A stretch of 64,000 nt of DNA from a virus. The first letter of the stretch is position 1. The number at the start of each line of letters is the position of its first letter. The notes beneath the pieces are model-generated. The model saw only the letters and a list, made by a program, of their open reading frames with translations, did not search any database and was not told where the DNA came from. Of the stretch, positions 6,502 to 28,348 are shown piece after piece. The translations under genes and the position numbers were made by a program. The stretch spans positions 18,089 through 82,088 of the IMG/VR virus record IMGVR_UViG_3300043403_000102; one strand, given 5' to 3'.

Positions 6502-6889
6502 TGAGGGTTCCTCCGGTGATGGTGGTGACGAGCGCTTGCCAGTCTGGGGGTTCGGCCAGGTTGTCCACGTAGACGTCGGCCACGGGCTTCCCGGGGGCCT
6601 GCCAAACGACATCAAAGAGGCTCCACAACTGCGCGGCTTTCAGGGCCGTGCGCATCTCGTTGAACCAGGCCCACTGGGTTTCGACCCGCGCGGGGACGGC
6701 CCCGTAGGACCAGAACCGCTGTTCCTCGTCGAGGAGCTGGGGCGAGTCGTCGCAGGGGTTGCATCGACATGACCACAGGATCAGCCGACACCCGGCCGTG
6801 TGGAGGGCCTTGATGGCGGCGACCGCGGCGGGCTTGGGCACGCCGTTCGAGGCGATGGTGCCGTCGAAGTCTATGGCGAGCGTGGACAT
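6491..6889 (-). CDS. HAD-superfamily phosphatase-like protein
   Basis: About 132 residues, MSTLAIDFDGTIA. The DFDGT sequence is HAD motif I with the nucleophile and acid/base aspartates. LILWSCR fits motif II, and VDVYVDNLAE near the end fits motif III/IV. The ATG overlaps the portal stop (TGATG). A small HAD with no large cap domain would dephosphorylate a nucleotide, sugar phosphate or protein; the substrate is not readable. Its place between portal and minor head genes is unusual. Confidence 0.75.
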   Translation of the reverse strand: MSTLAIDFDGTIASNGVPKPAAVAAIKALHTAGCRLILWSCRCNPCDDSPQLLDEEQRFWSYGAVPARVETQWAWFNEMRTALKAAQLWSLFDVVWQAPGKPVADVYVDNLAEPPDWQALVTTITGGTLNGL

Positions 6890-8547
6890 CACAGCGGTGC
6901 GTCCATGCCCCCGAAGCCGCCCCCGGTCATGCTGTCCATCTCGGCCTTCTGCTGCTCGGCGATCCTGGCTTCCATCCCGGCGACGTCGCGCACGTCGAAC
7001 ACGGGGGCCGCGCTCTTAACGGCGGTCTCCTGGTCGATGAGGCCCCCGGCCTTGGCCGCGACGATGTTGCCGATTACCTTCTGGTCGTCGTCGACGGTGG
7101 GCTGGAAGTACGGCCCCCATTGAAGCGCCAGATACCCACCGGGCCCGAGGGTCTGCTGGCCCATGGTACCGTCGGGGAGCTTGCGAGGCGGGAGCTTGAA
7201 GGCGTTCTTCAGGACGCGGGGGGCCCCCGTCGCTGCGTCGGGTTCCAGGGGAAACTCTTGGCCTAGGAGATGACGGGCCATCTTCTCGACGATGAGCAGC
7301 AACGGAATCATGCCGAGGTCGCCGTATTGGGCTCGCAGGTCGTCGGACTTCTCGAGCATGGGTGCATAGATGTATTCGATGGCCTTGGCCGACTGGGCGG
7401 CCCCCGAGATGGTTTGGGGGTCGACCATCACGCACCGAACGACGTCGAGGGTGTTCTGCTTCAACCGGTCGAAAAACTCCTGCCCGGCCTTGACGCCAGA
7501 GCCCGTGATCTCGAGAAAGTTGGCGGTGCCACCGGGGCCTACGTTAAGGGCGCCCGCGCTACCGGTGCGCACGCTGCCGCCTTGGGAGGCCATGACCTTG
7601 GGATCCACGCCCAGCACCAGCGTGGGGTCCAGGTTCGCCAGGATGGCCTGGTTGATCTGACTGATGATGCGGTCCATCGTGTCGAAGTTCTGCCAGGACC
7701 CGTGGCAGTCCGGGTGACCGTCTTCGCTCTCGGTGACGGGGAGGTTCTGAATCCAAACCCCGGGAAAGAACCCGAGGTTGTGTTCGACTTGGTCTTCGAC
7801 CTCCCACTCGAACGAGGCATCGTCTGTGAGCTGCACGGGCTTGTAGACGATGTCGTGCTCGGAGGTGATGATGCGGCGGTAGAGGAAGTCCACGATCTCG
7901 GTGCCGTCGACGTTGCCCTGCTTATCGTAGTGGTCGACCTCGACGGGGTACCGATATGACTTCAGCACCGCGGCGGGCGTGAAGGTGCGGCGGTCCTTCC
8001 ACATGATCTGAAGGTGCTTGGGGTTATGGACCTCAAGGCTGAATTTCCCTTCGCGAACGTGGGCCGTGACCAGGACGGAGCCGCAGGACCCGCCGATGGT
8101 GCGGGCCTCGCGCATCTTGGCGGTGAAGCGCATCTGCTCCATAGCGGCAAGCAAGAACTGCTCGGTGTCGGGGTCACCCTCGACCGTGAGCTTGGGCTTG
8201 CGCGTCTCCCCGAACAGGAGGCCCGTGAACCTATCGACGACGGCCTTGCACAGGTGGTACGGGGCGGTGGGACGTTTGCCACGCACGCTCATGGACATGG
8301 CGGGCTGGGTAAACCCGTTGGGTACTAAGATCTCAGGGGACACCGTTTCGAGGTTGTCCGCATTCATCCCCCACCAGTCGAGCTTCAGGTGGTTGTACTG
8401 GGTCGTGTCATAGAACGCCTGGTAGCGTTCGATTTGCTTGAAGCGCCTCGTCTCCCCAAGGACGGCGTTCGACTGCAGCACCTCGACGAGTTGGAAGTTC
8501 CGCTTGATGGGCGTTGTGGGGGCTGCCCCGCCGACGAGAGTGCTCAT
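6889..8547 (-). CDS. portal protein
   Basis: 552 residues. It has a helical N-terminus, the conserved clip/wing region (RIITSEHDIVYK; FFPGVWIQNLPVTE), a long helix-rich stem (SWQNFDTMDRIISQINQAI) and a C-terminal Gly/Met tail. Length and the KAVVDRFTGLLFGE and EMARHLLGQEF-type segments fit SPP1/T7-size portals. It lies upstream of HAD, HNH and MuF genes, as in many head modules. The dodecameric portal is the packaging channel and joins the tail. Confidence 0.85.
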   Translation of the reverse strand: MSTLVGGAAPTTPIKRNFQLVEVLQSNAVLGETRRFKQIERYQAFYDTTQYNHLKLDWWGMNADNLETVSPEILVPNGFTQPAMSMSVRGKRPTAPYHLCKAVVDRFTGLLFGETRKPKLTVEGDPDTEQFLLAAMEQMRFTAKMREARTIGGSCGSVLVTAHVREGKFSLEVHNPKHLQIMWKDRRTFTPAAVLKSYRYPVEVDHYDKQGNVDGTEIVDFLYRRIITSEHDIVYKPVQLTDDASFEWEVEDQVEHNLGFFPGVWIQNLPVTESEDGHPDCHGSWQNFDTMDRIISQINQAILANLDPTLVLGVDPKVMASQGGSVRTGSAGALNVGPGGTANFLEITGSGVKAGQEFFDRLKQNTLDVVRCVMVDPQTISGAAQSAKAIEYIYAPMLEKSDDLRAQYGDLGMIPLLLIVEKMARHLLGQEFPLEPDAATGAPRVLKNAFKLPPRKLPDGTMGQQTLGPGGYLALQWGPYFQPTVDDDQKVIGNIVAAKAGGLIDQETAVKSAAPVFDVRDVAGMEARIAEQQKAEMDSMTGGGFGGMDAPL

Positions 8548-11186: not shown

Positions 11187-11960
11187 TCAACGTACATTGA
11201 TGTTGGCGAAGGACGGTCCCGTGTTGCTCGCCTGAGCAGCCCCGCCCCAACGGGACATCGCCTCGCGGCAGAACCACATTGCCATGACGGTGTCGGCCTG
11301 CCCGCTCATGGGGTAGTTGTTGACCTCGGTGGTCCAGACGCACCAGCCGCACTGACAGGTCGGGGGGTGGCCCTCGAACTCGTCGGCGGGGATGACCCAG
11401 GCCTTGTTGGCGAACTCGACTTCTAGGCTGGGCAGGCCGACGTCGACCTTGTGCTTGTTGGCCCCGGTGGTGAAGCTTTCGATCTTGTACCAGAACGAGG
11501 CATCGACGCCGCCGACGTTCCGAATCCAGTCGATGATGGACTGCTGGTATCCGTTGTTCTCGACCATGATGTGCCGCACGTTCGGGTAGCTGGCGTGCAT
11601 CTGGGCCAGGTTCCGGGCGGTCTCGGGGCTGGTCCAGGCACCCCTTCGGATCTCCAGAGGGTAGCGGCGCTGGGTCGTGGGGTCGATAGACGCGGCAAAG
11701 ATGACGTTACCGGCCCGCGTGGCCCCTGCCAAGTCGACACCCATGAACGTGGGCCAGCCGCTGCGCTGGATATTCCCCAGGGCCACGCCGTGGCTGTAGC
11801 AGTTCTTGAAGCTCGGGAACAGCCGCTCCTCGTCCGTGAAGGCGCGCATCTGGAACCCACGGGCAAAGCTGCGGGGGTTCTCCTGCTGCTCCCTGCGAAG
11901 GCGGTCGGCGGGCCAATGCTCCCAAGGAGCCAGGGCAGGCAGCCGGTGCGTGTGGTTCAT
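11187..11960 (-). CDS. terL: large terminase, nuclease half (split TerL)
   Basis: 257 residues. Residues 11-50 contain the linker typical of the end of the ATPase domain (WPADRLRREQQENPRSFARGF, then FTDEERLFP). The RNase H-like nuclease follows: GVDLAGA (Asp about 76), MVENNG (Glu about 134) and SGQADTVMAMWF (Asp about 223). The three acidic metal ligands are in the right order. There is no ATPase domain; that half is at 25477-26337. The start ATG overlaps the upstream stop (ATGA), so this is a gene with its own start rather than a decayed remnant. Confidence 0.85.
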   Translation of the reverse strand: MNHTHRLPALAPWEHWPADRLRREQQENPRSFARGFQMRAFTDEERLFPSFKNCYSHGVALGNIQRSGWPTFMGVDLAGATRAGNVIFAASIDPTTQRRYPLEIRRGAWTSPETARNLAQMHASYPNVRHIMVENNGYQQSIIDWIRNVGGVDASFWYKIESFTTGANKHKVDVGLPSLEVEFANKAWVIPADEFEGHPPTCQCGWCVWTTEVNNYPMSGQADTVMAMWFCREAMSRWGGAAQASNTGPSFANINVR

Positions 11961-18451: not shown

Positions 18452-18771
18452 GTTCTCACCTTCCTCACCTTCCTATGCGGTTCCGGTTTTTGCTTGAACG
18501 ACCACCACTCGGCGCCGTCGTACTCACTCCGTTCGAGCCACCAATTACTGCCGACAATCACAAGCGCTGCAGGGACCTCTTGAGAACCATGCCCAGGGTA
18601 ATACGAAGCAAAGTGGGTCTCGGCGTAGGCAACGAAGCCCGCCCAATCACACGTTTTAAGCTCCAGGGCGCCGCCAACGGCCTGGAAAAACTCGATGTCC
18701 TCTGGAGTTTTTCCGTACTCCTTAAGAGCCCTAATCGTTTCGAATAACAAGTTCTCCCTGCGCTCGCTCAC
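18448..18771 (-). CDS. hypothetical protein, about 107 aa
   Basis: I place the start at GTG 18771 (SERRENLLFETIRAL), coupled by GTGA to the small gene upstream. The product has an N-terminal helix and a C-terminal beta part with many Trp/Tyr (AALVIVGSNWWLERSEYDGAEWW) and a basic end. The layout resembles a small nucleic-acid-associated protein, but no family is recognised. Confidence 0.55.
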   Translation of the reverse strand: MSERRENLLFETIRALKEYGKTPEDIEFFQAVGGALELKTCDWAGFVAYAETHFASYYPGHGSQEVPAALVIVGSNWWLERSEYDGAEWWSFKQKPEPHRKVRKVRT

Positions 18772-20236: not shown

Positions 20237-20572
20237 TCAGCGGAACGTCGTCAGGTGCTTTATCACCAGAGGCTCGGCCGCAGCCAGGCAGTCGGGGCAC
20301 GTCACCGTCTCGAATAGGTAGGTCCAAGGGGCGCGCTCGTTGGCCCCGCAGTAGTGGGCCTGGAACATGTGGTTGATGGGGCGCCAGTGAAGCACCTGCG
20401 GAGGCCTGAGCAGCTCGCGTGTCGTGAGGCGCGTGACCACGAGCGGGGGTAGCGGCTTGGCGCTGACGTCCCACCAGAACCGCCACCACAAGCGACGCCA
20501 ACCCCCGAGGGCCTCGAAGCGATGTCGGGCCAGGGCCAGCCTGCCTATGCGCAGCAGCCACGGGGAGGTCAT
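20237..20572 (-). CDS. microprotein-family member with basic N-terminus, 111 aa
   Basis: Start at ATG 20572, overlapping the stop of the next gene (ATGA). The N-terminal 60 residues are unusually rich in Trp/Arg (WRRLWWRFWWD). The C-terminal 50 residues carry the microprotein pattern: HMFQAHYCG, then TVTCPDCLAAAE, that is His, Cys and CxxC. It looks like a family member with an added amphipathic or membrane-active segment. Confidence 0.55.
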   Translation of the reverse strand: MTSPWLLRIGRLALARHRFEALGGWRRLWWRFWWDVSAKPLPPLVVTRLTTRELLRPPQVLHWRPINHMFQAHYCGANERAPWTYLFETVTCPDCLAAAEPLVIKHLTTFR

Positions 20573-20757
20573 AGCTTTATGTGCTCCCTGCACAGGGGGC
20601 AAAGTATCTCGGTGGACAAGGGCTTAGCTATTGCCAGTAGATCGGTGGGTACCTCGCGCACGCACCGCGCTTTGAACGTCGGTCCCGTTACCGGCCAATA
20701 AGCCTGCAAGTGCACGACGCCTTCTAAGATCTCACGCAGCTCATCGGCTTTTGTCAT
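20569..20757 (-). CDS. zinc-ribbon-like microprotein, 62 aa
   Basis: MTKADELREILEGVVHLQAY... ending LCPLCREHIKL. One Cys at about 32 and CPLC near the C-terminus plus VVH give the family arrangement of His, Cys and CxxC. Overlaps both neighbours by four bases. Function unknown. Confidence 0.55.
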   Translation of the reverse strand: MTKADELREILEGVVHLQAYWPVTGPTFKARCVREVPTDLLAIAKPLSTEILCPLCREHIKL

Positions 20758-21200
20758 GTTCGATCACCTATGTGGTTGGGGAAGACCGCGCCCGCGGGCA
20801 GCTCAGGCATGAGGCCATTCACCACCAAGAAATCCCGACAGCTATACCCCGAGAGCTCCCGGTACAGCAGCATAGCCGTGCGCAAGGGTTCGTCGTCGCG
20901 GAGCATCTCGATGACCTTCCTGCGGTGCCCGATGTCGACGTCGAAGTGTCCCGCGACGGCCACAGCCCACCGTGGCCCCCACCAGCGCATTTGATCATGA
21001 GCATTGCTATCCACGGCTATTGCCTCCTTCAACAAGGTTGGGATCGCCTTCGCAAGCAACATGCGCGTAGCCCCTAGCCTAACGTAATCGATGGCCTCCA
21101 TGTCGAGCTTGACCTGGTTGATGCGATGGCCAACCGTCGCCTCATGATCTGAGCGCAGACGGTACCTTACGCCGCAGATTGAACACGTGCCCTTGGCCAT
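20754..21200 (-). CDS. zinc-finger protein, 148 aa
   Basis: Begins MAKGTCSICGVRYRLRSDHEATVGH, a CxxC...H...H finger at the N-terminus. The rest is helical (LGATRMLLAKAIPTLLKEA; RRKVIEMLRDDEPLRTAMLLYRELSG). The N-terminal finger and length differ from the small array members. It could be a nucleic-acid-binding regulator. Function unknown. Confidence 0.55.
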   Translation of the reverse strand: MAKGTCSICGVRYRLRSDHEATVGHRINQVKLDMEAIDYVRLGATRMLLAKAIPTLLKEAIAVDSNAHDQMRWWGPRWAVAVAGHFDVDIGHRRKVIEMLRDDEPLRTAMLLYRELSGYSCRDFLVVNGLMPELPAGAVFPNHIGDRT

Positions 21201-21203
21201 TGG

Positions 21204-21647
21204 TCAGAGCCCCGGAAGATTGGCTTGCCCTGCGTCCTGGTACTTGACGAGGACCTTCGTCGCTTTCTTAACGGCGCGCCAACGCTTCATGAGAAGTCTG
21301 ATTGAGTCGATGAGGTCGCCGTAGTTAGGGCTAGGCAACCTGACGTCGGCCCATGCGTCTGCGTCGCCCGCGTAGGCCGTGAACAACTCGAGGCCCCGTC
21401 GATGCATGCGGTTGCGCGTGTCTTCGTCGGCATAGTAACTCAGCACCTCGAAGGCCTTTGCTCGCCACGTAACGAGGTGACCATCAACGCCCCAGTCGCA
21501 GGCGAAGGCGAGCATGTAAGGCGGAACGTACGTGCCCCGGTGAATCCCGCCTTGGATCTTGATGAAGGTACCAGGGGCCATGTTGTTGCTGGCCGCCCTG
21601 GCACAGCCGTTCGTGACCTTGATGAAGCCCTCGGGAATCTTTGCCAT
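21204..21647 (-). CDS. hypothetical protein, 147 aa
   Basis: Start at ATG 21647 (MAKIPEGFIKVTNG), one base after the upstream stop. It has a small N-terminal beta part, a helix-rich centre (AKAFEVLSYYADEDTRNRMHRRGLEL) and a basic C-terminus (LLMKRWRAVKKATKVLVKY). No known family recognised. Confidence 0.5.
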   Translation of the reverse strand: MAKIPEGFIKVTNGCARAASNNMAPGTFIKIQGGIHRGTYVPPYMLAFACDWGVDGHLVTWRAKAFEVLSYYADEDTRNRMHRRGLELFTAYAGDADAWADVRLPSPNYGDLIDSIRLLMKRWRAVKKATKVLVKYQDAGQANLPGL

Positions 21648-21648
21648 G

Positions 21649-21873
21649 TCAGCCCCTCCTGATGCTGTTAACGAGCACGCCGCATTCCTTGCACAAGGTG
21701 GTCCCCGGCAGGACAATGCGCTCGGCAGGGACGAGCCAGGCATAGGGGACCATGTTGCCACAAAGCGTATGCGTAAGGCCCATCCCCGCGTAGGAATCCC
21801 CCCTGCGCCTTTCGTGAACGACCCCTGCCAGTTGGGCGTCCATGTATCGGGCTATGCGTTCCCTCTCAAGCAT
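21649..21873 (-). CDS. zinc-ribbon-like microprotein (TLCG type), 74 aa
   Basis: MLERERIARYMDAQLAGVVHERR..., then HTLCGNMVPYAWLV and TLCKECGVLV. This is the canonical array pattern: N-terminal helix, VVH, TLCG-x-x-VP-x-x-W, then CxxC. It lies upstream of the main array and is probably a dispersed copy. Confidence 0.65.
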   Translation of the reverse strand: MLERERIARYMDAQLAGVVHERRRGDSYAGMGLTHTLCGNMVPYAWLVPAERIVLPGTTLCKECGVLVNSIRRG

Positions 21874-21879
21874 GTAGGC

Positions 21880-22476
21880 TCAGCAGGAGCAGGAGAAGAA
21901 GTTACCTCGGTCGGGGCCGACGTTCGCGCCCGTATAGATCGCGTAGTGCTCCCAGAAGTCATCACGCACTCGGTGCCCTTCCCAACGACCGCCGTCACTC
22001 AGGTAGTGGTCGTGAGCTAGGTACATGTCAGCCGCGTGCATGAACTCCTTAAGGTCGAGGCCTGCGGCTTCGGCCTCCTCGACCATCACGGCCCCCGCGC
22101 GCAGGAAGCGATCGCGGCTCTCGCTGTCCTCGACTGGGGGTGAGTCAATCTGGGGGTGCGACCACACGTGGCGCAGGGACGTGATCTTGCGGGGTAGGAC
22201 CACGAACCAGAAGTGCTCGCCTGGATCTACGTGGCGCGGAATGAAGGGGTCCACGATACCAAGGGCGTCGGCGGCATCGACGCACGCCACTGCGTCTATC
22301 CCGTTGCTCTGAAGGGTGACGTGCTGACCTCGCTGCAACCGATGAGCCGCACGGGCAGGAAGTACGGCGAGGTGGATGGCATCGCGTTTCTCCTTGTCGG
22401 TGATAATGGTCCCTAGGGTTTCGAGGGCGTCGGTGGAGACACTGCGCTTGTCGGCGCTCTTGGTTGGCTTGCTCAT
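21880..22476 (-). CDS. conserved phage hypothetical protein, 198 aa
   Basis: Acidic protein. Recognisable blocks are KRDAIHLAVLPARAAHRLQRGQHVTL, DALGIVDPFIPRHVDPGEHFW and PRKITSLRHVWSHPQ, followed by a helical part and the ending NFFSCSC. I believe similar proteins occur in other large phages without assigned function. The start is fixed by promoter copy 3, whose box ends five bases before the ATG. Confidence 0.65.
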   Translation of the reverse strand: MSKPTKSADKRSVSTDALETLGTIITDKEKRDAIHLAVLPARAAHRLQRGQHVTLQSNGIDAVACVDAADALGIVDPFIPRHVDPGEHFWFVVLPRKITSLRHVWSHPQIDSPPVEDSESRDRFLRAGAVMVEEAEAAGLDLKEFMHAADMYLAHDHYLSDGGRWEGHRVRDDFWEHYAIYTGANVGPDRGNFFSCSC

Positions 22477-22482
22477 GCCTGG

Positions 22483-22508
22483 TATTTAGGGCAACTATTC
22501 GGGTTTAC
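22483..22508 (-). promoter_or_regulatory. repeated promoter motif, copy 3
   Basis: GTAAAC-N13-CTAAATAC, followed by CAGGC and the ATG at 22476. The context is identical to copy 2 for more than ten bases around the start, and the first codons (MSK) are shared too. The motif overlaps the end of the upstream gene. Confidence 0.7.
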
Positions 22509-22725
22509 CCCGAGCCAGCAGGTTGCTGAACTCCTCGATCACCATGAACTCGGCGGCGGCTAGGGCCTCGTCGAGGCTGCCTGCGAAGTATTGCCCTCGG
22601 GCTTCGCGCAGCGTGGTGATCTGCCAGTTGCGCTCTCCTTCGGGCCCGCCGACCATTGCGCGCTGGGGGAGGATCCAAAGCTCATAGCTGCCGTGGCCTT
22701 GCCGGTACCAGTCGCGGTGTCTCAC
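22495..22725 (-). CDS. hypothetical protein, 76 aa
   Basis: MRHRDWYRQGHGSYELWILPQ..., with a Trp/Tyr-rich N-terminus and a helical C-terminus (SLDEALAAAEFMVIEEFSNLLA). The pattern of a short beta hairpin then a helix with DEALAAAE resembles small DNA-mimic or adaptor folds, but nothing is certain. Coupled by a 4-base overlap to the membrane protein upstream. Confidence 0.55.
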   Translation of the reverse strand: MRHRDWYRQGHGSYELWILPQRAMVGGPEGERNWQITTLREARGQYFAGSLDEALAAAEFMVIEEFSNLLARGKPE

Positions 22726-22856
22726 TCGTTGTTACCGTTCGGTAACGCCATGGCCAGCGATCCTAGGACGATGCCGAACTCCCACAGCTTGAAGCCGAGG
22801 GTGCCGACGTCAAAGAAGACGATGCCTGCGAGGGTTCCGACGATGAGCATCTTCAT
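22722..22856 (-). CDS. small membrane protein, 44 aa
   Basis: Start ATG 22856 (MKMLIVGTLAGIVFF), overlapping the stop of the first array gene. About 35 of 44 residues form one or two hydrophobic segments (TLAGIVFFDVGTLGFKLWEFGIVLGSLAMAL). It ends in a short polar tail. It could be an inner-membrane factor; no function is known. Confidence 0.5.
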   Translation of the reverse strand: MKMLIVGTLAGIVFFDVGTLGFKLWEFGIVLGSLAMALPNGNNE

Positions 22857-23080
22857 GTGTGCAATTTCCGAGTGAGCCTTGCTATGCGAAGGCACTCCTC
22901 GCAGATGTGAATGTCGATCGACGGCTCCACCGCGTAAGCCCACTTCAAAGCGACGAAGTCCCCGCACAGCGTTTTGAAGTGACTGAGTATCGGGTTATGC
23001 CCTAGGGGTTCGCTGCTGAAGTGGTAGTCCTGCGCAAGGTCAGCACGCATCCTGCGGGCAGCCTTCTCCTCCTTGGTCAT
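22853..23080 (-). CDS. zinc-ribbon microprotein, array member 1
   Basis: 75 residues from ATG 23080. It has a charged N-terminal helix (TKEEKAARRMRADLAQDYHF), then FKTLCGDFVALKWAY and HICEECLRIARL. The putative zinc ligands are the His of YHF, the Cys of TLCGD and the CxxC pair. Very similar to the members at 23316 and 23077. Four-base overlaps join it to both neighbours. Confidence 0.7.
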   Translation of the reverse strand: MTKEEKAARRMRADLAQDYHFSSEPLGHNPILSHFKTLCGDFVALKWAYAVEPSIDIHICEECLRIARLTRKLHT

Positions 23081-23319
23081 GGTATCTTGCTCCGGGTTCT
23101 TAGGCGGCCTTCGGATAGGTGCGCACAGTCTGAGCACATCGTGTTACTCCGACCTGCAGGCATCGTGTAAGCTGACCACTGCAGCGGAGCGATGTCCCCG
23201 CATAGCGTGCGAAAATAGCCCGAGTGCAGATTGACGCTCGGGTGTTGATGGTGGGTGTAATGATAAAGCCGCGTGAGCTCTGCGCGCATCGAACACGCAG
23301 ACAGGGCCTCCGCGGTCAT
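23077..23319 (-). CDS. zinc-ribbon microprotein, array member 2
   Basis: 80 residues, MTAEALSACSMRAELTRLYHYTH..., then FRTLCGDIAPLQWSA and TMCSDCAHLS. The family order is kept: helix, YHY, TLCGD, W, CxxC. The region between the two Cys positions differs strongly from its neighbours, so the family keeps a scaffold and varies its surface. Confidence 0.7.
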   Translation of the reverse strand: MTAEALSACSMRAELTRLYHYTHHQHPSVNLHSGYFRTLCGDIAPLQWSAYTMPAGRSNTMCSDCAHLSEGRLRTRSKIP

Positions 23320-23582
23320 ACTGCTTCCTTCCTGTAAACTGTAGGGTCTCTTTCACCACGGGCCAAACGTTCGCAATCCAGGCACAAATCATCAGCCCTC
23401 AACCTTGACGTGGGTGTTGCATATAGAACGGACCACTCAACGGGGACAATGTCCCCACAAAGGGTCTTAAAGTAGCGAGACATACCGCTGTGGTACGTAT
23501 CCCTGCGCTGACTGAAGTGATACACCCTTACAAGGTCCGCGTGCATCCTGCGGGCGGCCTTCTCTTCCTCGGTCAAGGCCAT
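23316..23582 (-). CDS. zinc-ribbon microprotein, array member 3
   Basis: 88 residues, MALTEEEKAARRMHADLVRVYHFSQ..., then FKTLCGDIVPVEWSV and DLCLDCERLARGE. Its N-terminal EEKAARRM-x-ADL is shared with member 1, which indicates recent duplication. It overlaps member 4 by ten bases. Confidence 0.7.
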   Translation of the reverse strand: MALTEEEKAARRMHADLVRVYHFSQRRDTYHSGMSRYFKTLCGDIVPVEWSVLYATPTSRLRADDLCLDCERLARGERDPTVYRKEAV

Positions 23583-23818
23583 GTGATCTGCCCTGGTATC
23601 CGTTCACCGACTACCACGCGCGCGCAGTCAGGGCACATCTGGTCGGAGGCGTTGACCGTGTTTGGGTACGAACAGACCCAGCGCGATGGAATAAGCACCC
23701 CGCACTTCGAGCGAAAGAAGTGCCCTTCCATCGCCGGGATGGCGATGTCGGCGTAGTGGTAGACCTCGGCCATGTTCGCCGTCATTAACGACACTCGAAA
23801 GTCTTGGTTGGTGATCAT
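23573..23818 (-). CDS. zinc-ribbon microprotein, array member 4
   Basis: 81 residues from ATG 23818. It begins MITNQDFRVSLMTANMAEVYHY, then FRSKCGVLIPSRWVC and QMCPDCARVVVGERI. SKCG replaces TLCG; the other positions are kept. Coupled by ATGA to the gene upstream. Confidence 0.65.
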   Translation of the reverse strand: MITNQDFRVSLMTANMAEVYHYADIAIPAMEGHFFRSKCGVLIPSRWVCSYPNTVNASDQMCPDCARVVVGERIPGQITWP

Positions 23819-24090
23819 AAACCTCTGCCCACAAGCCCGCCCATCAGGATGCTGTAACACAGGGGGCAGATTAGGTCGGCCAAGATCCTGTCCTTCGATT
23901 TAATCCAGGGGCCCCTAGGCACGTACGCTTCACACCAGGCCCTATAGAACGCTTGGCCCTCGTCGTTGTACATGGCAGGGTAGCCCATCCAGATGTGGAC
24001 GACCTGAGCCAACTCGGCTTCCATCGTGAACTTGACGGCGTCGAAGTCCGCGATGGCTTGGGTGGAGTACTTAGGTGGTGGCGAGCCCAT
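23815..24090 (-). CDS. zinc-ribbon microprotein, array member 5 (operon leader)
   Basis: 91 residues, MGSPPPKYSTQAIADFDAV..., with VVHIWMG, FYRAWCEAYVPRGPW and LICPLCYSIL. It is a divergent member: WCEAYVP in place of LCGDVVP. It is the first gene behind promoter copy 4, with five bases between the box and its ATG. Confidence 0.6.
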   Translation of the reverse strand: MGSPPPKYSTQAIADFDAVKFTMEAELAQVVHIWMGYPAMYNDEGQAFYRAWCEAYVPRGPWIKSKDRILADLICPLCYSILMGGLVGRGL

Positions 24091-24096
24091 GCCTTG

Positions 24097-24122
24097 TATT
24101 TAGGGCAGCCATTCAGGTTTAC
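24097..24122 (-). promoter_or_regulatory. repeated promoter motif, copy 4
   Basis: GTAAAC-N13-CTAAATAC in the middle of the microprotein array, ending close before ATG 24090. The TAA of GTAAAC is the stop codon of the upstream array gene at 24119-24364. Confidence 0.7.
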
Positions 24123-24364
24123 CCAGGGAACGAGGCACACTCGGGGCACACGGGGCTGTCGATGCCCACTGACGTCCCTTCAATCACGAGGACGCCACAC
24201 AGGCCTTCGAGCAGGCCTTGCCCTATCGGACGTAGGCGCAGGTGCCGCACGCGATCCGTGTTCTCAAGGACTCTGCGCATGCGCTCGACCCGATTGCGCG
24301 CTCGACGCTCCTTAGCAGCACGGCGCTTGCGGCTGACGACTTGGATCTTCTGGCTCTTGGTCAT
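24119..24364 (-). CDS. zinc-ribbon microprotein, array member 6
   Basis: 81 residues from ATG 24364. The N-terminal half is very basic (KRRAAKERRARNRVERMRRVL). The C-terminal half has VRHLRL, GLCGVLV and PVCPECASF. The basic helix sets this copy apart and would suit nucleic-acid binding. Confidence 0.6.
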   Translation of the reverse strand: MTKSQKIQVVSRKRRAAKERRARNRVERMRRVLENTDRVRHLRLRPIGQGLLEGLCGVLVIEGTSVGIDSPVCPECASFPG

Positions 24365-24591
24365 CTCAGCGCCCGCCTTGCCATGCAGTCCTCGCATCGA
24401 ACCAGCGTCTCGTCCCACCTCATACGGTGAGGGCTAAGGGTGATCCATTTGCGAGGCACCACGTCACCGCACAGTGTTTCGACAGGCTCGTCGTCAACAT
24501 CCTCAGTGGGCCTTGACGATAATAAATGCTTGGGAAAATGGGACACCCCCACCAACTCAGCACGCATCAAGGACGCGGGGTTCATCTTCAT
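24361..24591 (-). CDS. zinc-ribbon microprotein, array member 7
   Basis: 76 residues, MKMNPASLMRAELVGVSHF..., then VETLCGDVVPRKWITL and VRCEDCMARR. This copy is close to the family consensus. Overlaps both neighbours by four bases. Confidence 0.7.
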   Translation of the reverse strand: MKMNPASLMRAELVGVSHFPKHLLSSRPTEDVDDEPVETLCGDVVPRKWITLSPHRMRWDETLVRCEDCMARRALR

Positions 24592-24833
24592 AGGCCCCTC
24601 AAGTAGGGCACATGAATGCGATGGTATTCGCGCAAGCAGTCAGGGCACCAGTACGGGGTCTTGTCTGTGACCTCGTGAAAGCGCGTGGTGATCCACTTGA
24701 ACGTCACGACCTCGCCGCACAAGGTTTCGATGGGGTGCTGGTCATACAGTTGCTCTCGGGACAAGACATGCCTGTGGTAGTGAAATACCCCGCGAAGGTC
24801 GGCACGCATAAGGTTTGCCTGGTCCATCACCAT
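24588..24833 (-). CDS. zinc-ribbon microprotein, array member 8
   Basis: 81 residues, MVMDQANLMRADLRGVFHYHRHVL..., then IETLCGEVVTFKWITT and WCPDCLREYH. It resembles member 7 in LMRA-(E/D)-L-x-GV and KWIT, so the two are probably a recent tandem pair. Confidence 0.7.
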   Translation of the reverse strand: MVMDQANLMRADLRGVFHYHRHVLSREQLYDQHPIETLCGEVVTFKWITTRFHEVTDKTPYWCPDCLREYHRIHVPYLRGL

Positions 24834-24843
24834 TTCCCCTGCT

Positions 24844-25053
24844 TCATCCTACGACTGCCGTTCCATCTAGGCAGGCGGGGCACCAGGGGTATTCGAGGGA
24901 CGCGAATCGCTCCTCGGCAGTGACGATGACCCACGAACGGTGAACCACATCGCCGCAAAGCGCTTTCGTAAGTGGTTTCGCCACCTCACCAACGGCAATG
25001 AAGTGCTTCACACCTATGAGGGTATCTCGCATGAGTGCGGCTCGCGCGTTCAT
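24844..25053 (-). CDS. zinc-ribbon microprotein, array member 9
   Basis: 69 residues from ATG 25053. It begins MNARAALMRDTLIGVKHF, then KALCGDVVHRSWVIV and PWCPACLDGT. All four putative ligands are present. Confidence 0.7.
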   Translation of the reverse strand: MNARAALMRDTLIGVKHFIAVGEVAKPLTKALCGDVVHRSWVIVTAEERFASLEYPWCPACLDGTAVVG

Positions 25054-25250
25054 CGGGCCTGCCAAAGCTGGAGGCACTCCGCGCACTTGATGTCCTCGGG
25101 GAAGTGCACGATGTGATTGCTCCCTACCGATAACTTTCGCCCACAGTACGCCCATGAAGTTGCGGCGTGCACAGAGTACGCCCTTACGATATGAGGCCCG
25201 GTCAGCAAGGCCTCTACTCGCGCGGCGGCTTTCAGATCATCAAAGGTCAT
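25050..25250 (-). CDS. zinc-ribbon microprotein, array member 10
   Basis: 66 residues from ATG 25250. It begins MTFDDLKAAARVEALLTGPHIV, then WAYCGRKLSVG and IKCAECLQLW. A more divergent copy: YCGRK in place of LCGDV. Confidence 0.65.
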   Translation of the reverse strand: MTFDDLKAAARVEALLTGPHIVRAYSVHAATSWAYCGRKLSVGSNHIVHFPEDIKCAECLQLWQAR

Positions 25251-25480
25251 CCGCCCACCGGGTCCTGCCTCTTTATCACCCCGTGAAGGGCCAGGCATTC
25301 GAGGCAGGCGGGCGCTGGCATGATCCACGGGTTGAACTCGGAGAACCACTGAGCCGGGACGTAGTCCCTGCATAGCGTCTCTATGAGGGGGGCTGTGCAG
25401 GCTCGGCCCGGGTACCTCCTGAGATGCTTAACCCCGTTAAGGGCCGCCCGCATAATACCCGCCTGCACCTCCTTGGTCAT
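25247..25480 (-). CDS. zinc-ribbon microprotein, array member 11
   Basis: 77 residues, MTKEVQAGIMRAALNGVKHL..., then IETLCRDYVPAQWFSE and PACLECLALHG. TLCRD replaces TLCGD. Its start overlaps the stop of the terminase ATPase gene by four bases, so the array is translationally coupled to a packaging gene. Confidence 0.7.
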   Translation of the reverse strand: MTKEVQAGIMRAALNGVKHLRRYPGRACTAPLIETLCRDYVPAQWFSEFNPWIMPAPACLECLALHGVIKRQDPVGG

Positions 25481-26337
25481 CCGCCCACCAGCTTGAACGG
25501 TGCGGTCTGAGGCCCCCCAACGAGCGGGTACGAGATAGGGTCAGGCGCCCCGATGAGTTCCTGCTCGATGACGTCGCACCCCTGGGATACGCGCTGGATG
25601 AGCGTGCACCAGCCGGGGCGCTGCATAAGGTGATGGGTGGCGTCGTCCAGGTGCCAGGGCGTCCCGATGTACAGCACGCGGGCGTCGGGCTCTAGGCGGC
25701 TCAACCACGTGCTCTCGATGAACTGAAGGACCTTGGACCGCTGGGTGGAGTCGAAGCTGTTCTTCTGGTCGACGACGTCGTCAAAGATCATGATGTCCGC
25801 TCGTCCACCCACGCCCGTCGTGAGGATGCCTCGGGCGTGAATGCTCGGGTCGATGGCCCCGCCCGTACGCTCCAAGTAGATCTCATGGCCCGCCCATTTG
25901 CGACCTCGACGGATGCCAGGGAAAATGCCCTTGAAGGCTGCGGTCTCGATGAGGGCCTTGGCCCTCTCGACTCGTTTGGTGGCGCTGCTGTCGTCGTTGG
26001 TGATGACCTTGATTCGGAGGTTCGGATCTCTACCCAGGGACCACGCGATAAGAGGCACCGCAAGCGTGGAGCTTTTACCGTGACCGAAGGGCGCCATGAT
26101 CATGGCCTTGAGTCCACGGGACCAGCAGTACTTAAGGTGAAGGATCCACTGTATGTGGATGGGGCTTAGGCGCAGTGGATGGCCGTGGTCGTCCTGGACC
26201 ACACGCTCGATGAACAGACCGAGGTCCCCCTTGGCTGCGTCGGAGGCGCGGGCCATCGTTGCATACATCAGCAGGAGCTTGCGCCGCTGGGCCAGGGGCA
26301 ACATGTCCGCGATGGTCGTTGTGGTCGTCTCAGCCAT
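25477..26337 (-). CDS. terL: large terminase, ATPase half (split TerL)
   Basis: 286 residues. Walker A is APFGHGKSS at 82-90, Walker B is IMIFDD at 182-187, and the coupling motif is YIGTPWH at 223-229. An N-terminal helical region with LRLSPIHIQWI resembles the adenine-binding area of terminases. The protein ends at residue 286, where the nuclease domain would begin; the missing nuclease is at 11187-11960. No intein residues are visible at the C-terminus (ends PFKLVGG). TerS lies upstream, as expected. Confidence 0.9.
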   Translation of the reverse strand: MAETTTTTIADMLPLAQRRKLLLMYATMARASDAAKGDLGLFIERVVQDDHGHPLRLSPIHIQWILHLKYCWSRGLKAMIMAPFGHGKSSTLAVPLIAWSLGRDPNLRIKVITNDDSSATKRVERAKALIETAAFKGIFPGIRRGRKWAGHEIYLERTGGAIDPSIHARGILTTGVGGRADIMIFDDVVDQKNSFDSTQRSKVLQFIESTWLSRLEPDARVLYIGTPWHLDDATHHLMQRPGWCTLIQRVSQGCDVIEQELIGAPDPISYPLVGGPQTAPFKLVGG

Positions 26338-26545
26338 GATACTGATCCCCGGACATCAAGGCACGCCAAGCCAGGCAGGCTGGGCATGTCGCAAGAGCCA
26401 GGACTCTAACAAAGTGCCCATTGACGTCGCACTTCGCCCAGTCGCCCCACACGGCGTCGCCCGGGGTATCGAAGGCAGGGAACACACCGCACGGGCCATT
26501 GGCGTAGTGAATGTCGCCCGTCGGCTTGTAGGTAATGCGGGTCAT
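26330..26545 (-). CDS. microprotein array, subtype B member 1
   Basis: 71 residues, MTRITYKPTGDIHYANGPCG..., then WAKCDVNGHF and ATCPACLAWRALM. Subtype B shares an N-terminal HY-x-x-GPC, a central aromatic segment and a C-terminal CPAC-x-x-WR. Four Cys plus His could bind zinc. Overlaps the terminase ATPase gene by eight bases. Confidence 0.65.
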   Translation of the reverse strand: MTRITYKPTGDIHYANGPCGVFPAFDTPGDAVWGDWAKCDVNGHFVRVLALATCPACLAWRALMSGDQYHG

Positions 26546-26551
26546 CCGGGG

Positions 26552-26782
26552 TTACTCGGCCTCCCGCATGCGTGCCCATGTATCGTCGGGGTTGGCGTCA
26601 ACGAGCATGCGCCATGCTTTGCAGGCGGGACAGTTGACGACGCGTGTGTGCAACCTGGGCGTCTTGTCCGAAGCACACTTCGCGTACTTAAACGTCGACC
26701 ACCACGTACCATCGCTCACGCGGCACTTGTCACTAAAGCAAGGACCCTGCAGGTAATGGATAATCAGTACGCTAAACGGCAT
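26552..26782 (-). CDS. microprotein array, subtype B member 2
   Basis: 76 residues, MPFSVLIIHYLQGPCFSD..., then WWSTFKYAKCASD and NCPACKAWRMLV. It follows the subtype B pattern closely. The C-terminal tail is acidic and longer than in member 1. Confidence 0.65.
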   Translation of the reverse strand: MPFSVLIIHYLQGPCFSDKCRVSDGTWWSTFKYAKCASDKTPRLHTRVVNCPACKAWRMLVDANPDDTWARMREAE

Positions 26783-26999
26783 GGCTCAGGGCCTCCCACA
26801 TCGCGCAAGCAGGGCACATCTCGTCGTCACCCATAGTCCCAGCGCGAGCAACCCACGCCTCCCACATCTTCGGGAACATGTGATCGTAGTTCTTTAAATG
26901 GTAGTGGCTGCTGTGCTGGGTAAACGTCGGCGTGCCCTCGGGGCAAACACAAGGGCCGTCCACGTAGTGAGCAAGGCGTACCAAATCGAAGGCGCTCAT
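26772..26999 (-). CDS. microprotein array, subtype B member 3 (operon leader)
   Basis: 75 residues from ATG 26999 (MSAFDLVRLAHYVDGPC); GTG 27002 is an alternative. It has CVCPEG, MWEAWVA and EMCPACAMWEAL. It is the first gene behind promoter copy 5, with six bases between box and ATG and no ribosome site. Confidence 0.65.
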   Translation of the reverse strand: MSAFDLVRLAHYVDGPCVCPEGTPTFTQHSSHYHLKNYDHMFPKMWEAWVARAGTMGDDEMCPACAMWEALSHAV

Positions 27000-27006
27000 C
27001 ACTTTG

Positions 27007-27032
27007 TATTTAGGGCCGGGCGTTCGGGTTAC
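27007..27032 (-). promoter_or_regulatory. repeated promoter motif, copy 5 (variant)
   Basis: GTAACC in place of GTAAAC, then 13 bases and CTAAATAC. It ends a few bases before the start at 26999/27002. This is the weakest upstream half of the nine copies. Confidence 0.6.
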
Positions 27033-27319
27033 CTAGATTGTCCAGTTGGCGGGATCATCGTACTGTCGCACTTCAGCACTTCAGGTGCGGCGAGCTCCCG
27101 CCACATCTCGCACGCGGGGCAGTAGTCGAACCCGGCATCGGCGTGCTCGAACCACGCATGTCGCTTGTAGGCACCTCCATAAAACTGGTGAAGCTCGGGG
27201 TCATAGTCCTTTGGCTTTGTACACGGCCCTCCTTCATGGTGCACGAGCAACCCGCCGCTAAGAACTGACCGGGGGTTGCGGAGTAAGCTCGTGCAGGCCA
27301 AGCGCTGAGGAAGGGTCAT
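27029..27319 (-). CDS. microprotein array, subtype B member 4
   Basis: 96 residues from ATG 27319 (MTLPQRLACTSLL). It has LVHHEGGPCTKP, KRHAWFEHADAG and DYCPACEMWRELA, with a 20-residue C-terminal extension. Overlaps member 5 by four bases. Confidence 0.65.
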   Translation of the reverse strand: MTLPQRLACTSLLRNPRSVLSGGLLVHHEGGPCTKPKDYDPELHQFYGGAYKRHAWFEHADAGFDYCPACEMWRELAAPEVLKCDSTMIPPTGQSR

Positions 27320-27519
27320 CGCTCGGCCGCCATGAAGCGTGCAAACATCTCGCATGCGGGGCAGCGTCGTATGTCGACGCCATCACCAGAAGGCTCGAAC
27401 CAGGTTCGGTAATGGATACGCCCTGCCCTCTCGTGCGTTTCGTGTTCATAGCCTGGCGGCTTCACGCAGGGTCCCTCCTCATAGTGCGCGATGTAGCCGT
27501 ACTTAGTTCTTGGGGTCAT
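27316..27519 (-). CDS. microprotein array, subtype B member 5
   Basis: 67 residues from ATG 27519 (MTPRTKYGYIAHYEEGPCVKP), then HYRTWFEPSGDG and RRCPACEMFARFM. It overlaps the end of the TerS-like gene by 17 bases. Five subtype B copies therefore lie between the TerS-like and TerL-ATPase genes. Confidence 0.65.
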   Translation of the reverse strand: MTPRTKYGYIAHYEEGPCVKPPGYEHETHERAGRIHYRTWFEPSGDGVDIRRCPACEMFARFMAAER

Positions 27520-28348
27520 CGCTGCTCGTGGTGGTGACGGTACCGAAGAGGTCCTCGGCGCTAACACCGGGGGGCATGGCACCTCCGCTGGTGATGATGT
27601 AGTCGAGCTGCTCGGGCGTGAGCTTCTGAAAGGCGGCGAGCGCAGAGGCTGCGGTGCCCATGATCTCGGCCCGCGAGGTAGGGCCCCCACGCCAGAAGGA
27701 CTCGATGCGACCGACGGCCTCGACGGAGTTGACGATGGTGCGCCAGGCATCGGCCATCTCAAGCGCGGAAGCAGGGACATCCTCATCGATGACATGAACG
27801 TCGCCGTGCTTGTCGAGCACCTTGCGTTTGCGGTTCTTGATGAACTCGGCGCGCTGGGTCGCGACGTTGGCCTTCATGATGAGGTTGCCGAGGCCAATCT
27901 TGGTGGCGTGGGAGAGCTTGAGCATGTGGGCCTTGTTGGCCTCCCACTCCTCGGACTCCTTCTTTTTCTTGTCCTCGATGGTGCTGGTCTTGGCCGTGGC
28001 TGCGGCTGCCTCCCATACGCGCAGTCGTTCGATGAATGATGGGAACCCACGCTCGGGATAGCCGTCCTCGACGAGGCGCGAGATGGTCTGAAAGGACAGG
28101 GAGAACATGGCGGAAAGCCTGGACTTATTGCGGGTGCCGTCTCGCCAGGATTCCCATATGGCTTCGTAGAGCTCGGCGTCGATGCGCTTGCCGTGGTGCT
28201 TGTGCTTGGGGTCGCCCTTGATGACCTTGCGCTTACCCTTGATGTAGCTCCCGCCGTTCTTGGCTGTGGTGTGCGGGGGTGGTATGACCGTCGTGGGGTC
28301 GGGGACGTTTGGCGGTGGTGGTGCTGGCGGGTCGTTCGGGTTGGACAT
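27503..28348 (-). CDS. putative small terminase subunit (TerS-like)
   Basis: 281 residues. A Pro/Lys-rich N-terminus is followed by a helix-turn-helix region at about 60-105 (ELYEAIWESWRDGTRNKSRLSAMFSLSFQTISRLVEDG). A long coiled, charged middle (EDKKKKESEEWEANKAHMLKL) and an acidic C-terminus follow. This is the layout of small terminases: DNA-binding HTH, oligomerisation helices, tail. It is the nearest large gene upstream of the TerL ATPase half. Length is above the usual 150-200 residues. Confidence 0.7.
   Translation of the reverse strand: MSNPNDPPAPPPPNVPDPTTVIPPPHTTAKNGGSYIKGKRKVIKGDPKHKHHGKRIDAELYEAIWESWRDGTRNKSRLSAMFSLSFQTISRLVEDGYPERGFPSFIERLRVWEAAAATAKTSTIEDKKKKESEEWEANKAHMLKLSHATKIGLGNLIMKANVATQRAEFIKNRKRKVLDKHGDVHVIDEDVPASALEMADAWRTIVNSVEAVGRIESFWRGGPTSRAEIMGTAASALAAFQKLTPEQLDYIITSGGAMPPGVSAEDLFGTVTTTSSDDPKN

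What the first reader, a model, noticed from the sequence alone, without database searches (positions are those of the whole stretch)
20237..27519. Tandem array of diversified zinc-ribbon microproteins around the terminase genes
About 16 co-directional genes of 60-96 codons lie in two blocks (22853-25480 and 26330-27519), with dispersed relatives near 18.8, 20.6, 20.2 and 21.7 kb. They share a scaffold: N-terminal helix, a His (V-x-H-Y/F), a Cys in TLCGD, a Trp, then CxxC; subtype B reads HY-x-x-GPC...CPAC-x-x-WR. Lengths and surface residues differ strongly while the likely zinc ligands stay fixed. Four-base overlaps join most members, and promoter copies 4 and 5 lie inside the array. The pattern looks like expansion under selection, perhaps effectors aimed at host factors or defences.
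Basis: partly seen in the sequence, partly recalled or inferred. Interest (0 to 1): 0.85.

Follow-up and report, generated by a model that had tools for sequence, protein, structure and literature searches.

The report
Phage-specific tandem arrays of zinc microproteins
An uncultivated phage carries two dense runs of tiny, very different, probably zinc-binding protein genes (13 related genes of one family and 5 of another) packed around its DNA-packaging genes; none of the relatives searched has them, which points to a recently amplified set of accessory proteins of unknown target.

Summary
The array is real, all on the minus strand. The 20.2-27.6 kb stretch holds 19 minus-strand ORFs with an ordered His...Cys...CxxC pattern; shuffles give 0.3 on average. 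They form two sequence families, not one. Family A has 13 genes (22853-25480, plus 21649 and 20569); 11 of 13 are recovered leave-one-out. Family B has 5 genes (26330-27519). A and B cannot be joined by sequence. The gene at 20237 is a third, conserved type: relatives have it in single copy, and its Cys half aligns with family A. The gene at 18768 is unsupported. Frames are intact and translationally coupled, also to TerL. Closest pairs have dN below dS, so positive selection is not shown. No A or B genes were found in 24 IMG/VR records related to the phage, including contigs of 75-93 kb, or in any database searched. Most likely these are amplified accessory proteins that keep one zinc-stapled scaffold and vary the surface and the target (inferred). 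The closest precedent is the ~35-copy zinc-ribbon expansion of Bacillus phage G, a different family. By-product: the terminase large subunit is split, with ATPase and nuclease genes 13.5 kb apart and array A between them.

The parts
27503..28348 (-). TerS-like gene upstream of block B (281 aa)
   Evidence: Orthologues adjacent to or upstream of TerL in G004, G003, G011, G012 and G013; no PHROG hit
27316..27519 (-). B1, family B zinc microprotein, 67 aa
   Evidence: LOO E 2e-13
27029..27319 (-). B2, family B, 96 aa
   Evidence: LOO E 3.7e-11
26772..27002 (-). B3, family B, 76 aa; promoter-like element just upstream
   Evidence: LOO E 6e-6; element at 27014
26552..26782 (-). B4, family B, 76 aa
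   Evidence: LOO E 9.6e-7
26330..26545 (-). B5, family B, 71 aa; overlaps TerL start by 8 bases
   Evidence: LOO E 4.6e-5
25477..26337 (-). TerL ATPase half (286 aa), ends where the ATPase domain ends
   Evidence: phrog_38 E 3.8e-37, profile 266-471; Walker A APFGHGKSS
25247..25480 (-). A1, family A, 77 aa; 4-base overlap with TerL
   Evidence: LOO E 2.8e-12
25050..25250 (-). A2, probable divergent family A member, 66 aa
   Evidence: LOO 9.0 bits, below shuffled maximum 11.7; H, CG and CxxC in order
24844..25053 (-). A3, family A, 69 aa
   Evidence: LOO E 2.3e-12
24588..24833 (-). A4, family A, 81 aa; modelled by AlphaFold2 (pLDDT 77)
   Evidence: LOO E 2.3e-14; model
24361..24591 (-). A5, family A, 76 aa
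   Evidence: LOO E 4.6e-14
24119..24364 (-). A6, probable divergent family A member, 81 aa, very basic (pI 11.3)
   Evidence: LOO 12.0 bits, shuffled maximum 12.5
24092..24121 (-). Promoter-like element GTAAACC-N10-CCCTAAATAC between A6 and A7 (other array copy near 27002-27030)
   Evidence: 6 matches at up to 3 mismatches against 1.07 expected, none of 100 shuffles as many
23815..24090 (-). A7, family A, 91 aa
   Evidence: LOO E 4e-6
23573..23818 (-). A8, family A, 81 aa
   Evidence: LOO E 8.4e-11
23316..23582 (-). A9, family A, 88 aa
   Evidence: LOO E 3.5e-18
23077..23319 (-). A10, family A, 80 aa
   Evidence: LOO E 4.4e-16
22853..23080 (-). A11, family A, 75 aa
   Evidence: LOO E 3.4e-16
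21649..21873 (-). D1, dispersed family A member, 74 aa
   Evidence: LOO E 1.5e-13
20569..20757 (-). D2, dispersed family A member, 62 aa; overlaps D3 by 4 bases
   Evidence: LOO E 6.1e-6
20237..20572 (-). D3, conserved single-copy zinc-ribbon type with aromatic N-terminal helix and Pro-rich linker, 111 aa
   Evidence: Orthologues in L016, L021, L022, L034, L039; hhalign to family A 78%, E 1.8e-5
11187..11960 (-). TerL nuclease half (257 aa), 13.5 kb from the ATPase half
   Evidence: phrog_38 E 1.3e-11, profile 489-628; invariant Asp/Glu/Asp in 4-row alignment

Best explanation
Two families of small, probably zinc-stapled accessory proteins were amplified locally in this phage lineage at both edges of the TerL ATPase gene. 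Shown: each member keeps four candidate ligands (His, Cys, CxxC); the genes are intact, mostly joined by 4-base start-stop overlaps, broken into sub-operons by a repeated promoter-like element, and absent from all relatives examined. Inferred: each is a treble-clef-like mini-domain held by one zinc (A4 model: N-terminal helix, beta strand with the His, TLCG turn, then a long helix whose start carries CxxC). Lengths, loops and charge differ so that each copy binds a different partner, most likely host or competitor proteins during infection. The conserved single-copy gene D3 (20237) may be the ancestral type of family A.
For: Family statistics; ligand invariance; excess over shuffles; intact coupled frames. 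A and B absent from G003, G004 and 22 further virus records, including five of 75-93 kb, although TerS, TerL, the 836-aa protein and portal are conserved there. The TerS-TerL junction is empty in G004 and holds unrelated small genes in G003 and G015, so it is a site of gene turnover. Charge from -5 to about +10 argues for different partners rather than one nucleic-acid ligand. Adjacent copies are more alike than in random order (p 0.015), and the TerL/A1 and A1/A2 junctions share GGTGGGCGGATGACC, both as expected of tandem duplication. D3 to family A: hhalign 78%.
Against: No functional match in Pfam, NCBIfam, PHROGs, PDB or BFVD. The only selection signal is purifying. No infection, expression or metal data. 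The A-D3 link rests on 30 columns and may be shared ligand geometry. All members come from one metagenomic contig; the near-identical second contig (L008) stops before the array.
Confidence: 0.42

Rival explanations
1. Nucleic-acid-binding or transcription-modulating zinc ribbons, as proposed for the phage G expansion: each copy binds DNA, RNA or RNA polymerase and tunes host or phage transcription.
For: Zinc ribbons are classic nucleic-acid binders (general knowledge); PMC7824862 proposes this for ~35 copies in phage G; some members are very basic (A6 +9.6, D3 +7.9); repeated promoter-like elements lie among the genes.
Against: Most members are near neutral or acidic (B3 -5.0); no similarity to any known DNA-binding zinc family above threshold; phage G ZnR is a different family with a CxxC...CxxxC-type pattern.
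Confidence: 0.25
2. Packaging or virion accessory proteins: the small proteins work with the split terminase, for example bridging the separately encoded ATPase and nuclease subunits.
For: Position on both sides of the TerL ATPase gene and translational coupling to it; the terminase is split; single H-C-CxxC genes also occur near TerS-TerL in some relatives (L021, L026).
Against: Relatives with a similar or wider split (G012 10.5 kb, G003 15.7 kb, G015 17 kb) have no A or B family; G004 has TerS directly abutting TerL. One accessory role does not explain 18 divergent copies.
Confidence: 0.1
3. A duplication-prone locus whose copies are mostly neutral cargo, kept open because they were duplicated recently and cost little.
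For: Absence from all relatives; tandem duplication signature.
Against: Copies are at most 49% identical, with dS saturated or nearly so and dN about 0.3 of dS or lower for the closest pairs; 18 frames without a stop and with fixed ligands do not fit neutral drift.
Confidence: 0.1
4. A dedicated anti-defence repertoire, each member neutralising one bacterial immune system.
For: Small size, diversification around a fixed scaffold, location in a region of gene turnover, absence from relatives.
Against: No test; no hit to any described family in the libraries searched; positive selection not shown. It is a special case of the best explanation.
Confidence: 0.13

Closest known systems
ZnR expansion of Bacillus phage G (YP_009015343.1 and about 35 copies; PMC7824862)
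   Same: Lineage-specific, many-copy expansion of small probable zinc-ribbon proteins in one phage, partly clustered, function unknown.
   Different: Phage G copies seen here are about 107-118 aa with a CxxC...CxxxC-type pattern; they are not recognised by the A, B or D3 profiles at a significant level. Ours are 62-96 aa, H...C...CxxC, tightly tandem and coupled to terminase genes.
Pfam DUF3039 (PF11238)
   Same: By my recollection of that family, the same order of features: His, (A/T)LCG, W, CPxC; matched by 2 members of the A family (best E 0.036).
   Different: Below the gathering score (13-14 bits against 22.7); DUF3039 function is unknown, and it is not known to me as a tandem array.
D3 type of this phage lineage (window 20237; L016, L021, L022, L034, L039)
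   Same: H...(P)LCG...W...CPxC; Cys half aligns with family A (hhalign 78%).
   Different: One copy found per relative, about 99-111 aa, with an N-terminal hydrophobic or aromatic helix and Pro-rich linker.

Membership tests
DUF3039 (PF11238) | Profile score above the Pfam gathering cut-off of 22.7 bits | tested here: not met
   13.0 and 13.7 bits
DUF3039 (PF11238) | Order His ... LCG ... W ... CPxC | tested here: met
   Present in most A members; the DUF3039 side of the comparison is from memory
Phage G ZnR family | Sequence similarity to gp32-like ZnR | tested here: not met
   A, B and D3 profiles give only E > 0.4 on phage G 1-50 kb, while gp32 itself finds 4 paralogues there
Phage G ZnR family | Many-copy, lineage-restricted expansion in one phage | tested here: met
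   13 A + 5 B in this phage, 0 in relatives
Structural zinc-binding mini-domain (treble-clef-like) | Four conserved ligands with the last pair at a helix N-terminus | tested here: met
   Ligand columns invariant; DSSP of the A4 model shows helix 64-79 starting at the CxxC (C63, C66). Family A only
Structural zinc-binding mini-domain (treble-clef-like) | Fold match to a solved zinc ribbon or treble clef | tested here: inconclusive
   No PDB match with E <= 0.001 or Z >= 2; weak BFVD hit A0A6J5PD54 (prob 0.89, TM 0.48, E 0.12); B model poor (pLDDT 59)
Structural zinc-binding mini-domain (treble-clef-like) | Bound zinc | not testable with these tools
   Needs purified protein

The most novel reading that the evidence does not exclude
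One phage has built, from a single-copy zinc microprotein, a repertoire of 18 divergent zinc-stapled binders, each aimed at a different host or immune target and made from the same messages as its terminase: a phage counterpart of a multigene effector family.
Probability: 0.22. Interest if true: 0.82.

Novelty: new variant of a known kind. Interest (0 to 1): 0.52.

Why it matters
The one close precedent found for such a large family of zinc microproteins in a phage (phage G) has no known function, so a second, unrelated case in an 80-kb phage shows that such expansions recur. If the copies are target-specific binders, the array is a ready library of small stable inhibitors of bacterial proteins, and the dense tandem layout makes whole-block deletion and single-gene expression simple to design. 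The families would also add new small-protein families to phage annotation.

Tried and rejected
One shared scaffold for A and B: rejected as a claim of homology (hhalign 6%). Membership of 18768: rejected (4.6 bits). Positive selection: no support. DUF3039 membership: below cut-off. A phage G type ZnR: rejected by sequence. Vibrio phage K404 and Pseudaeromonas phage KLEP7 hits: E 0.2 and 2; K404 has one H...CG...CPEC C-terminus in a larger protein, no array. Relatives of A and B in IMG/VR, phages and GTDB: none by peptide-pattern scans or tblastn. The promoter-like element as a tracer of sister phages: it found contigs L003-L007 without arrays. Host identification from GTDB with TerL: none. 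Correlation of similarity with distance along the array: not significant (p 0.18), although adjacent pairs are (p 0.015). The first look of the genome search might miss weak hits, so absence was rechecked with hmmsearch --max on the loci held, which cover only parts of those records.
Full report
What is there. The window is part of an 82,088-base uncultivated virus record. Between 20.2 and 28.3 kb all genes of interest run on the minus strand. In transcription order: a TerS-like gene (27503-28348), five family B genes (B1-B5), the TerL ATPase gene (25477-26337), eleven family A genes (A1-A11, 25480 down to 22853), then other small genes with D1 (21649), D2 (20569) and D3 (20237) among them.

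Is it more than chance? The stretch 20.2-27.6 kb holds 19 minus-strand ORFs of 55-130 aa with an H...C...CxxC pattern, 0 on the plus strand, against a mean of 0.3 and a maximum of 3 in 200 dinucleotide shuffles. A leave-one-out profile test recovered 11 of 13 A members at E 6.1e-6 or better and all five B members at E 4.6e-5 or better; 25,520 shuffled segments reached at most 13.7 bits. A2 and A6 score 9 and 12 bits, at or below the shuffled maximum, and are members mainly by position and ligand order. D3 and D4 (18768) fail this test. In the whole 82-kb record the A and B profiles find clear hits only in this region (one further A match at E 0.003, 14 bits, lies in a long frame elsewhere).

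One family or two? A and B profiles do not find each other; hhalign gives 6%. In A the His-Cys gap is 14-22 residues and the Cys-CxxC gap 16-24; in B they are 5 and 33-44. They share the order of likely ligands, which can arise twice.

Coding and selection. The claimed frame has the best codon score of the six, or nearly so, for almost every gene. Eleven of 19 junctions are 4-base start-stop overlaps, including TerL/A1. For the closest pairs (A4/A5, A9/A11, B1/B2; 48-49% identity) dN is 0.46-0.50 and dS 1.6, saturated and 2.7: old duplicates under constraint. This does not show diversifying selection and, with saturated dS, cannot exclude it at single sites. Adjacent copies are more alike than in random order (p 0.015), but the overall order correlation is weak (p 0.18). 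TerL/A1 and A1/A2 share the 15-base junction GGTGGGCGGATGACC (sequence), a likely duplication trace.

Promoter-like element. GTAAACC-N10-CCCTAAATAC recurs on the minus strand, often 6-7 bases before a start codon, with copies at 27014 and 24104-24121 inside the blocks. Transcription from it is not shown. If its TAAATA acts as a -10 box, some messages would be nearly leaderless (inference).

Relatives of the phage. Using the portal and the TerL halves I found more than 30 related contigs. TerS, TerL, the 836-aa protein, the nuclease half and the portal are conserved. A and B were not found in G003, G004 or 22 further virus records, nor with unfiltered hmmsearch on the held loci. In G004 TerS overlaps TerL by 4 bases, so the B block has no counterpart; G003 and G015 have other small genes there. 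The near-identical contig L008 covers only about 2.9-16.7 kb of the window and says nothing about the array.

Origin. D3 has orthologues in G004, G011, G012, G013 and L034, with H...(P)LCG...W...CPxC; in G011 it lies about 0.85 kb downstream of TerL, where block A sits here. hhalign of family A against the D3 alignment gives 78% and E 1.8e-5 over 30 columns, and array members take 8 of the best 9 non-self places when the D3 profile is run on the window's 1,276 six-frame segments, though none with a significant score beyond A4 (E 0.011). Amplification of a D3-like gene is plausible. Convergence on ligand geometry is not excluded, and the alignment used for hhalign contains two doubtful distant rows (L026, L040).

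Structure. AlphaFold2 on A4 with 13 rows: mean pLDDT 77, pTM 0.65; helix 5-14, strand 17-20 with the His, strand 35-37 before the TLCG turn, helix 64-79 starting at the CxxC. No solved structure matches; one uncharacterised phage protein in BFVD is a weak match. The B model is poor. Zinc itself is inferred from the ligands.

Mechanism. Most likely (0.42): amplified accessory proteins with a zinc-stapled scaffold and different partners. Rivals: transcription or nucleic-acid modulators (0.25), an anti-defence repertoire as a special case (0.13), packaging accessories (0.10), near-neutral cargo (0.10).

Known or new. Lineage-specific expansion of small zinc ribbons in a phage is described once in what I could read: about 35 copies in Bacillus phage G, proposed as transcription factors or structural DNA-binding proteins (PMC7824862). 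The families here are unrelated to it by sequence and unmatched in Pfam, NCBIfam and PHROGs. I file it as a new variant of a known kind.

By-product. The large terminase is split: the ATPase gene matches phrog_38 positions 266-471 and a separate gene at 11187-11960 matches 489-628, with conserved acidic residues in an alignment of four. Distant relatives have one ORF (L045, L047, L048, L054, L058), others two adjacent ORFs (L033, L044, L029), others a wide gap, and G013 has the order nuclease, TerS, ATPase.

Noticed in passing
25477-26337 and 11187-11960 (window); L021-L058: The terminase large subunit is encoded as two genes, ATPase and nuclease, 13.5 kb apart. Relatives form a series from one ORF, through adjacent ORFs, to gaps of about 1.6, 5.5, 10.5, 15.7 and 17 kb, and one with permuted order (nuclease, TerS, ATPase).
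   Followed up: partly
L016:15868-17922 (G004): The TerL ATPase gene of a relative is interrupted in frame near query residue 88 by about 1.2 kb that reads through as one 684-aa ORF, intein-like (insert starts CQPAGALVQMSDGSEVPIGRL).
   Followed up: no
window minus strand 53430, 41372, 38634, 35385, 27014, 24121, 22507, 20234, 17083: A repeated promoter-like element GTAAACC-N10-CCCTAAATAC (some copies vary), often only 6-7 bases before a start codon. Exact matches to the pattern occur in five IMG/VR contigs (L003-L007), but not in the relatives' loci held here.
   Followed up: partly
L026:8877-9302, L021:9015-9482: Single small H...CG...CxxC ORFs lie at the TerS-TerL junction of two relatives, the place where block B sits in this phage; similarity to A or B is not significant.
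   Followed up: partly
window 21880-22476: Protein of unknown function (phrog_11912, E 2.8e-54) shared with very large phages of Achromobacter, Sinorhizobium, Erwinia, Caulobacter and others at about 40% identity, although other proteins of this phage that were searched found no close match there.
   Followed up: no
window 6889-8547: The only annotated phages with a related portal are Komagataeibacter phages phiKX1 and phiKX2 (27% identity), a faint hint of an alphaproteobacterial host.
   Followed up: no
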